From an uncultured Lachnospiraceae bacterium (GTDB taxonomy: Bacteria; Bacillota; Clostridia; Lachnospirales; Lachnospiraceae): a stretch of 64,000 bases of DNA. The stretch covers positions 1-64,000 of the forward strand of contig CAMOSN010000001.1 in the NCBI GenBank assembly GCA_946624935.1, given 5' to 3'. The first letter of the stretch is position 1. Each line of letters opens with the position of its first letter. A program made the translations under genes and the position numbers. Shown here in pieces: positions 13,566 to 15,093 of the stretch. Under the pieces are notes generated by a model. It was given only the letters and a program-made list of their open reading frames with translations. It ran no database searches and had not been told where the DNA came from.

Positions 13566-13615
13566 TTGAAATTCGCTGCGTAGTGTGATACACTACATGT
13601 AGTTTTAAAAACTAC
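13566..13615 (+). promoter_or_regulatory. Promoter overlapped by two tandem perfect palindromes
   Basis: TTGAAA (13566-13571) and TACACT (13589-13594) are 17 bp apart. Two perfect 17-bp palindromes of the form GTAGT-N7-ACTAC lie at 13580-13596 and 13599-13615, with centres 19 bp apart. The first covers the -10 box and the second the expected start. Alternating half-sites also form ACTACATGTAGT across the junction. This is a strong repressor-site layout ahead of the 84-aa gene. Confidence 0.7.
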
Positions 13616-13644
13616 GTTATCGGGTTTTGGGGAGGCGATTCGTC

Positions 13645-13899
13645 ATGACAGGAAAAGAGTTAAAGGCATTTTTCGAGGAGCATCTGGTTCCTTCCAGGCT
13701 GTATAAGATCGGCGGCAAGCATAATCACAGAATCTGCATGGAGTCGACAAAGGATGGATGGGATGTTTTTTTCAGCGAACGCAGCGAAAAGGTCGGTGTC
13801 ATGCATTTTCATGATGAAGCAAGCGCATGTGCTGCACTGAAAAATGAGATCCGCAAGGCCATGGAGGTTATGTACGGACTTACCTGGGCAGGTGCATGA
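13645..13899 (+). CDS. Small hypothetical protein (84 aa)
   Basis: I do not recognise this protein. It is soluble and of mixed charge, with His/Arg-rich YKIGGKHNHRICME, then DGWDVFFSERSEKVG and a helical end (SACAALKNEIRKAMEVMYG). It resembles an alpha/beta domain of about 80 residues. The ORF track start at 13627 falls in the ribosome site (GGGGAGG), so ATG 13645 is used. It is monocistronic, with tandem-palindrome promoter upstream and a terminator 50 bp downstream. The tight promoter architecture says its level is controlled, but the signal is unknown. Confidence 0.65.
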   Translation: MTGKELKAFFEEHLVPSRLYKIGGKHNHRICMESTKDGWDVFFSERSEKVGVMHFHDEASACAALKNEIRKAMEVMYGLTWAGA

Positions 13900-13952: not shown

Positions 13953-14010
13953 AAGCCATGCATTTTCTGCGCGCATCTGCGGTGCGGAAGGCTGCATGGC
14001 TTTTCCTATT
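13953..14010 (+). terminator. Terminator after the 84-aa gene
   Basis: A perfect 10-bp pair AAGCCATGCA/TGCATGGCTT encloses an inner GC-rich hairpin and runs into TTTTCCTATTTT. Confidence 0.75.
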
Positions 14011-14256: not shown

Positions 14257-15093
14257 GTGATTGGAGTAATTGACGTCGGGGGAGGAATGCGCGGAATCTA
14301 CGGAGCGGGCGTTTTTGACTATTGCATGGATCAGGGTATTTCCTTTGATGCCTGTTTTGGTGTATCTGCCGGGGCGGCAAATATCAGTTCCTATGTCGCA
14401 CATCAGCGGGGCCGGAACTATCGATATTACAGTGAATATGCGTTTCGCAAGGAGTATATGGGCTGGGAAAACTTTGTCCGGACCCGTTCTTATATCAACC
14501 TGAATTATATCTACGGAACCCTTTCTAATTCGGACGGGGAATATCCGCTGGATTATCCAAACATGCTTTCTTCGGGCAAGCAGATGCAGATCGTCACAAC
14601 GGATGCCCGAACGGGAAGGCCGTATTATTTCAGCCTGGAGGATATGCAGCAGGATAAGTATGATCCGATCAAAGCCTCCTCCTGTGTTCCGGTGGTGAAC
14701 CGGCCTTATACCATCAATGGCATTCCTTATTATGACGGCGGAATCAGTGATCCCATTCCCGTTAACCGGGCATTTCGGAAGGGCTGTGACAAGGTGGTTC
14801 TGATCCTGACCAGGCCGCGGGATGATTATCGCGATTCCAACAGTGACCGGCGTCTGGCAAAGCTCATTGCAAAGCGCTATCCCAAAGCCGCTTATAAGCT
14901 GGCCCACCGGGCACAGATCTACAACCGACAGCTGGATCTTGCCAAGAGCTACGAAAAACGTGGAAAGGTACTCATTATTGCGCCGAAGGACATCAGCGGA
15001 ATGAAGACGCTGACAAAGGATCTTGACGCAATGCGTTTCATGTATCAGGAAGGATATGAGGATGCTGAAAAGATTCCTGCATTCATCGGATGA
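14257..15093 (+). CDS. Patatin-like phospholipase
   Basis: The protein is a serine lipid hydrolase of the patatin family. The Ser-Asp dyad motifs are present: glycine-rich oxyanion loop DVGGGMRG (residues 6-13), nucleophile GVSAG (S37) and DGG (D160). The C-terminal 90 residues form a charged helical region of the type found in bacterial YjjU-like members. At 278 aa it is complete, with no signal peptide or membrane span, so it is cytoplasmic or peripherally bound. The start is GTG at 14257 with AAAGGA upstream. The next gene begins inside its last 32 nt and the third overlaps the second, so the three are co-translated. In other systems patatins serve as membrane-damaging effectors; here that is only a possibility. 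Confidence 0.85.
   Translation: MIGVIDVGGGMRGIYGAGVFDYCMDQGISFDACFGVSAGAANISSYVAHQRGRNYRYYSEYAFRKEYMGWENFVRTRSYINLNYIYGTLSNSDGEYPLDYPNMLSSGKQMQIVTTDARTGRPYYFSLEDMQQDKYDPIKASSCVPVVNRPYTINGIPYYDGGISDPIPVNRAFRKGCDKVVLILTRPRDDYRDSNSDRRLAKLIAKRYPKAAYKLAHRAQIYNRQLDLAKSYEKRGKVLIIAPKDISGMKTLTKDLDAMRFMYQEGYEDAEKIPAFIG

What the first reader, a model, noticed from the sequence alone, without database searches (positions are those of the whole stretch)
13566..13615. Tandem perfect operators GTAGT-N7-ACTAC over a promoter for an 84-aa gene
Seen: two 17-bp perfect palindromes with identical half-sites, centres 19 bp apart, cover the -10 and start of a TTGAAA-17-TACACT promoter. Half-sites alternate so that dimers could bind in two registers (ACTACATGTAGT between them). 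Such geometry favours cooperative repressor binding. The half-site wording recalls BlaI/CopY-type operators, but spacing differs. No repressor gene is adjacent.
Basis: partly seen in the sequence, partly recalled or inferred. Interest (0 to 1): 0.62.

Follow-up and report, generated by a model that had tools for sequence, protein, structure and literature searches.

The report
DUF1836-repressor operator at a small gene
One of the two reported DNA palindromes is a switch site conserved across Lachnospiraceae and probably bound by a little-studied repressor (DUF1836) that also controls fatty-acid and membrane genes, which places an uncharacterised 84-residue protein in that set; the other palindrome is not conserved.

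Summary
The sequence is as described: GTAGT-N7-ACTAC occurs twice, at 13580-13596 and 13599-13615, over a TTGAAA-17-TACACT promoter, and nowhere else in the draft genome. The tandem reading is only half right. All 13 orthologous genes compared carry the downstream palindrome (TGTAGTTTTNAAAACTACA) three bases after an extended -10, although their gene neighbourhoods mostly differ. The upstream palindrome is absent even from the 89%-identical orthologue. Across 195 related genomes, 60 of 84 near-matches to the downstream site (20 of 21 at 0-1 mismatch) lie just upstream of hemolysin III/TrhA, DegV, DUF1836 or this gene. DUF1836 is an HTH-clan protein, and in 21 of 30 genera its own promoter carries a match, usually filling the spacer between -35 and -10. 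Best explanation: a DUF1836 (YkrK-like) autorepressor of a membrane/fatty-acid regulon that includes the 84-aa gene. Binding is inferred, not shown. The window's own draft (86% complete) lacks DUF1836, and it also lacks pcrA, its frequent neighbour, so the locus may simply be unassembled. No repressor is adjacent because in this genus it sits elsewhere, beside pcrA.

The parts
13598..13616 (.). Conserved operator TGTAGTTTTAAAAACTACG (perfect 17-bp core 13599-13615), overlapping the predicted transcription start
   Evidence: 13/13 orthologous promoters score 21-34 bits; 0 of 2600 shuffles reach 20. Same motif at DUF1836, HlyIII and DegV promoters family-wide.
13580..13596 (.). Upstream palindrome GTAGTGTGATACACTAC over the spacer and -10; not conserved, probably incidental or a lineage-specific weak auxiliary site
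   Evidence: Matrix score 5.0 vs 30.7; absent from all 12 other orthologues. As RNA, a 7-bp hairpin of -7.7 kcal/mol, z -1.7.
13566..13571 (+). -35 hexamer TTGAAA
   Evidence: TTG-type -35 visible at this distance in most orthologues.
13586..13594 (+). Extended -10 TG-A-TACACT
   Evidence: -10 followed by three bases and then the operator in all orthologues, most with the extended TG.
13600..13602 (+). Predicted transcription start, inside the left half-site (inferred from the -10, not mapped)
   Evidence: Inference from the -10 position.
13645..13899 (+). 84-aa protein gene; helix, four-strand sheet, helix; orphan relative of small immunity-like proteins
   Evidence: Orthologues 56-89% identical; AlphaFold2 mean pLDDT 91.8; distant relatives next to polymorphic-toxin ends, one a TNT domain.
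13986..14005 (+). Terminator-like stem-loop after the 84-aa gene
   Evidence: Consensus scan.

Best explanation
The palindrome at 13598-13616 is the operator of a DUF1836-family HTH repressor (the family that contains B. subtilis YkrK). A dimer bound there would cover the transcription start and block RNA polymerase on the extended -10 promoter of the 84-aa gene. In related genomes the same repressor binds TATAGTTTTNAAAACTATA in its own promoter, usually filling the 17-bp spacer between -35 and -10 (autorepression), and TGTAGTTTTNAAAACTACA at hemolysin III/TrhA and DegV genes, so the 84-aa protein belongs to a membrane/fatty-acid regulon. The inducing signal is presumably a fatty-acid or membrane state. 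Shown by sequence: conservation, position, association with these genes. Inferred: that DUF1836 is the binder, the sign (repression), the signal, and that this species has the repressor. The upstream palindrome is not part of the conserved mechanism.
For: Operator in 13/13 orthologous promoters at a fixed 3 nt after the -10, with gene neighbourhoods shared only with the closest relative. 60 of 84 fetched near-matches in 195 genomes lie upstream of HlyIII (35), DegV (21), DUF1836 (6) or this gene, and 20 of 21 at 0-1 mismatch; further targets are an acyl-CoA-synthetase-like gene twice, once with an acyl-carrier-protein-like gene on the other side. DUF1836's own promoter holds the motif in 21 of 30 genera, mostly in the spacer, against 0.3-0.7% of shuffles. 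Divergent DUF1836-HlyIII or DUF1836-DegV pairs with similar palindromes occur in other Bacillota. Genomes with target-linked operators have DUF1836 in 51/57 cases against 92/138 others, Fisher p 6e-4. YkrK is described as repressor of htpX (PMC11790237), and a DUF1836 gene next to rsgI and htpX was seen in L215.
Against: No binding data. Own draft has no DUF1836, nor HlyIII. Five other genomes with target operators (G010, G012, G031, G038, G113; 93-97% complete) also lack it, although all six also lack a close PcrA homologue, the frequent neighbour of DUF1836. DUF1836 genes of G002, G003, G005 and G011, which carry the 84-aa gene, lack a good autoregulatory site. DegV in the own genome has at best a weak site (8.3 bits).
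Confidence: 0.8

Rival explanations
1. The operator is real, but another unidentified transcription factor binds it, and DUF1836 is merely one of its targets.
For: Six genomes with target-linked operators have no detectable DUF1836; some DUF1836 promoters in this genus lack the site.
Against: DUF1836 is itself in the HTH clan (PMC3146951), often divergent from HlyIII or DegV with the site between them, and is the gene whose own promoter most regularly carries the site in its spacer. All six genomes also lack close PcrA, consistent with a missing or lost locus rather than selective loss of the regulator.
Confidence: 0.13
2. Tandem operators: both palindromes are bound, cooperatively or in alternative registers; the upstream one is a recent addition in this species.
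For: Local chance of the upstream palindrome about 1e-4 with the -10 fixed; centres 19 bp apart, roughly two helical turns.
Against: Upstream site lacks the inner TTTT/AAAA that is nearly invariant in the motif, scores 5.0 vs 30.7 bits, is absent in all other orthologues; every related promoter has a single site.
Confidence: 0.1
3. The palindromes act as RNA: a weak terminator of the upstream gene (13580-13596) and/or a 5' hairpin (13599-13615).
For: The scan lists 13580-13596 as terminator-like; the downstream palindrome can fold as RNA, -5.2 kcal/mol, z -4.3.
Against: At DUF1836 promoters the same palindrome lies between -35 and -10 and is not transcribed from that promoter. Predicted transcripts here start inside the left arm; the 5' leader from 13601 is no more folded than shuffles (z +0.3).
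Confidence: 0.04
4. BlaI/CopY-type operator (reading ACTACATGTAGT as the site).
Against: ACTACATGTAGT does not occur at the other orthologues; the conserved motif is centred elsewhere and tracks DUF1836, HlyIII and DegV genes.
Confidence: 0.02

Closest known systems
YkrK of Bacillus subtilis (repressor of htpX; Marciniak 2012, Lin 2012, known here from citations and summaries only)
   Same: DUF1836 (PF08876) appears to be its family: a PF08876-positive gene sits next to rsgI and htpX in L215, as ykrK does in B. subtilis. Small HTH regulator next to a membrane-stress gene.
   Different: Target here is not htpX. Palindromes seen near the YkrK-like genes L215 and L216 are AGTTC-N4-GAACT-like rather than TAGTTTTNAAAACTA. 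The YkrK operator papers could not be read.
DUF1836-hemolysin III-DegV gene neighbourhood (Pei et al. 2011, PMC3146951)
   Same: That paper reported STRING neighbourhood of HlyIII with DUF1836 and with DegV, and suggested DUF1836 regulates hemolysin III.
   Different: The passages read give no operator, no autoregulation and no link to an 84-aa protein; here targets are mostly unlinked and tied together by the shared operator.
FabR regulation of E. coli trhA (yqfA) (PMC9017321)
   Same: Also places a hemolysin III/TrhA gene under a fatty-acid-responsive repressor.
   Different: Different regulator, operator and phylum.
Immunity proteins of TNT-type polymorphic toxins
   Same: Distant relatives of the 84-aa protein follow toxin C-termini, one a Pfam TNT domain (E 3e-19).
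   Different: No toxin was seen next to the window gene in the part read; the window protein itself has no Pfam match above cut-off.

Membership tests
DUF1836-type operator (defined here) | Matches TNTAGTNTTNAANACTANA palindrome | tested here: met
   30.7 bits, one mismatch to TGTAGTTTTAAAAACTACA.
DUF1836-type operator (defined here) | Conserved at orthologous promoters at fixed position | tested here: met
   13/13, three bases after the -10.
DUF1836-type operator (defined here) | A DUF1836 regulator in the same genome | tested here: inconclusive
   Not in the 86%-complete draft; pcrA, the frequent neighbour, also missing; 9 of 12 other genomes of the genus have DUF1836.
DUF1836-type operator (defined here) | Protein binds the site | not testable with these tools
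   Needs EMSA or footprint.
BlaI/CopY operator | Conserved TACA/TGTA dyad centred on ACTACATGTAGT | tested here: not met
   That dyad is not found at other orthologues.
Tandem cooperative operators | Both sites conserved | tested here: not met
   Only the downstream site is.
YkrK family (PF08876) | Regulator of this motif belongs to PF08876 | tested here: met
   L067 protein matches DUF1836 with E 6e-37; that it is the binder is inferred.
TNT immunity protein | Adjacent cognate toxin | tested here: inconclusive
   Flanking genes examined (MBL hydrolase upstream, patatin downstream) are not toxins; the rest of the genome was not searched.

The most novel reading that the evidence does not exclude
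DUF1836 proteins are family-wide autorepressors of a membrane/fatty-acid regulon in Bacillota, read by one defined palindrome, and an orphan immunity-like 84-aa protein has been recruited to that regulon, in some species in place of hemolysin III (within the genus 4 of 7 genomes with the small gene lack HlyIII, while all 6 without it have HlyIII; p about 0.05, drafts incomplete).
Probability: 0.3. Interest if true: 0.65.

Novelty: new variant of a known kind. Interest (0 to 1): 0.5.

Why it matters
It offers a concrete operator, an autoregulatory promoter design and a target list for a widespread regulator family that is still called a domain of unknown function, and ties hemolysin III/TrhA, DegV and an uncharacterised 84-aa protein into one testable regulon. 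The prediction can be checked with one purified protein and a few short DNAs. It also shows that a striking tandem geometry seen by eye was half incidental.

Tried and rejected
Genome search with GTAGT-N7-ACTAC: only these two sites. Relaxed own-genome search with 3 mismatches: 160 forward hits, fewer than the reversed control (438), so uninformative. Foldseek of the 84-aa model against PDB: no match at E <= 0.001. Profile of the 84-aa orthologues against PDB: none. DUF1836 profile against PDB: nothing significant. PADLOC, PHROGs and NCBIfam for the 84-aa protein: nothing significant. Own genome with DNA around G011 DUF1836: no match. YkrK operator papers not held. RNA-hairpin, terminator and BlaI/CopY readings considered and set aside.

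Full report
Observation. The two palindromes, their coordinates and the promoter are as described. The exact pattern GTAGT-N7-ACTAC is found only here in the draft genome (2.72 Mb, 217 contigs, 86% complete). The window comes from a Lachnospiraceae genome: the nearest orthologues of the 84-aa gene are in rumen and gut Lachnospiraceae MAGs.

Conservation test. Orthologues of the 84-aa protein (56-89% identical) were collected and their upstream 260 bp read. All 13 distinct loci, window included, carry the downstream palindrome, scoring 21-34 bits on a matrix built from sites in other genomes, while none of 2600 shuffled upstream regions reaches 20 bits. The operator starts three bases after the -10 (TATANT-type, usually an extended TGN-10). 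Of the window genes used as queries only the closest relative (L016/L004) shares the flanking genes in order, so the operator goes with the gene, not with the neighbourhood. The upstream palindrome 13580-13596 is absent in all the others and scores 5.0 bits against 30.7. Its local chance is about 1e-4, so a lineage-specific weak site is not excluded, but nothing supports it.

Family-wide distribution. TGTAGTTTTAAAAACTACA with up to 2 mismatches occurs in 80 of 195 genomes of the genus, family and order, usually once or twice. I fetched 84 sites. 60 lie immediately upstream of a hemolysin III gene (35), a DegV gene (21), a DUF1836 gene (6, three shared with a divergent hemolysin III) or the 84-aa gene; at 0-1 mismatch 20 of 21 do. 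Reading the rest by eye adds one hemolysin III (L048), one 84-aa gene (L107) and two acyl-CoA-synthetase-like genes (L134, L138), one of them opposite an acyl-carrier-protein-like gene. The gene names rest on phmmer with representatives that match HlyIII, DegV and DUF1836 in Pfam; those rest on reading the sequence. Sites that were not fetched are mostly imperfect palindromes, so these fractions apply to the fetched set. The matrix was built from sites found with that consensus near these genes, so matrix scores at those same sites are not independent evidence; the scores at DUF1836 promoters and at most orthologue promoters come largely from loci not used to build it.

Autoregulation. Among 30 DUF1836 loci, one per genus, 21 have a match of at least 12 bits in the promoter region against 0.3% of shuffles (0.7% at 10 bits) and 1 of 30 coding controls; in most the palindrome fills the spacer, for example TTGTCA-TATAGTTTTAAAAACTA-TATAAT. 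In a sample of 200 genomes across the phylum, DUF1836 genes often stand divergent from or beside hemolysin III or DegV with a similar palindrome between them.

Who binds. DUF1836 is placed in the HTH clan by Pfam and was suggested as a regulator of hemolysin III from gene neighbourhood in 2011 (PMC3146951). B. subtilis YkrK is described as repressor of htpX (PMC11790237; Lin 2012 and Marciniak 2012 are cited there and in PMC11841835 but are not held). L215 has a DUF1836 gene beside an RsgI-like gene and an HtpX-like gene, matching the ykrK locus order, which makes YkrK a likely PF08876 member. I infer that DUF1836 proteins bind the motif; nothing here measures binding.

The missing regulator. 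The own draft has no DUF1836 and five other genomes with target-linked operators (93-97% complete) lack it too. DUF1836 is next to pcrA in 16 of 30 family loci and in G006, G009 and G011 of this genus, and all six genomes lack a close PcrA homologue as well, showing only a 33-40% identical paralogue. Summing incompleteness over the 57 genomes with target-linked operators (table, my arithmetic) gives about 2.8 expected absences against 6 seen. A missing contig or a loss of the whole locus are both possible. Association of operator and DUF1836 over 195 genomes: 51/57 against 92/138, p 6e-4; within the family 43/49 against 50/71, p 0.02. Genomes are related, so these p values are optimistic.

The 84-aa protein. 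AlphaFold2 gives a confident alpha-beta-alpha model (pLDDT 91.8) with no PDB match. Distant relatives (E 1e-4 to 1e-8) lie next to polymorphic-toxin C-termini, one a TNT domain (E 3e-19), and one relative has a sub-threshold hit to Imm59 (E 0.0065). The window copy has no toxin beside it. Its function is unknown; by co-regulation I expect a membrane or fatty-acid-related role, with low confidence.

Mechanism. Most likely a DUF1836 dimer sits on 13598-13616, over the start site, and is released by a membrane or fatty-acid signal. TrhA-type proteins affect membrane energetics and E. coli trhA is under FabR (PMC9017321); DegV proteins bind fatty acids (PMC3146951). The sign and the signal are inference. 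Within the genus, genomes with the 84-aa gene lack hemolysin III in 4 of 7 cases and genomes without it never do (6 of 6 have it), p about 0.05 by my own Fisher calculation, on incomplete drafts.

Noticed in passing
L011:919-1812, L012, L013, L014, L015: Distant relatives of the 84-aa protein follow polymorphic-toxin C-termini in some loci (TNT domain in L011), suggesting an immunity-protein origin.
   Followed up: partly
L134 (G118) and L138 (G052): The operator also precedes an acyl-CoA-synthetase-like gene, opposite an acyl-carrier-protein-like gene in L134.
   Followed up: partly
L047 (G073): A one-mismatch operator precedes a 275-aa protein that is not one of the known targets (possibly a glycosyltransferase-like protein).
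   Followed up: no
G000 and G010, G012, G031, G038, G113: All lack both DUF1836 and a close PcrA homologue while keeping target-linked operators.
   Followed up: partly
L215, L216: YkrK-like DUF1836 genes have nearby AGTTC-N4-GAACT-like palindromes, a possible different operator of that subfamily.
   Followed up: no
L147 (G001): The DUF1836 promoter of G001 carries CATGGTTTTGAAAACCATA, a symmetric change of the half-site, while its 84-aa gene keeps the standard operator.
   Followed up: no
window 14257-15093: Patatin-like phospholipase with DUF6363 follows the 84-aa gene; 1.3 kb apart in L016, so not a fixed unit.
   Followed up: partly
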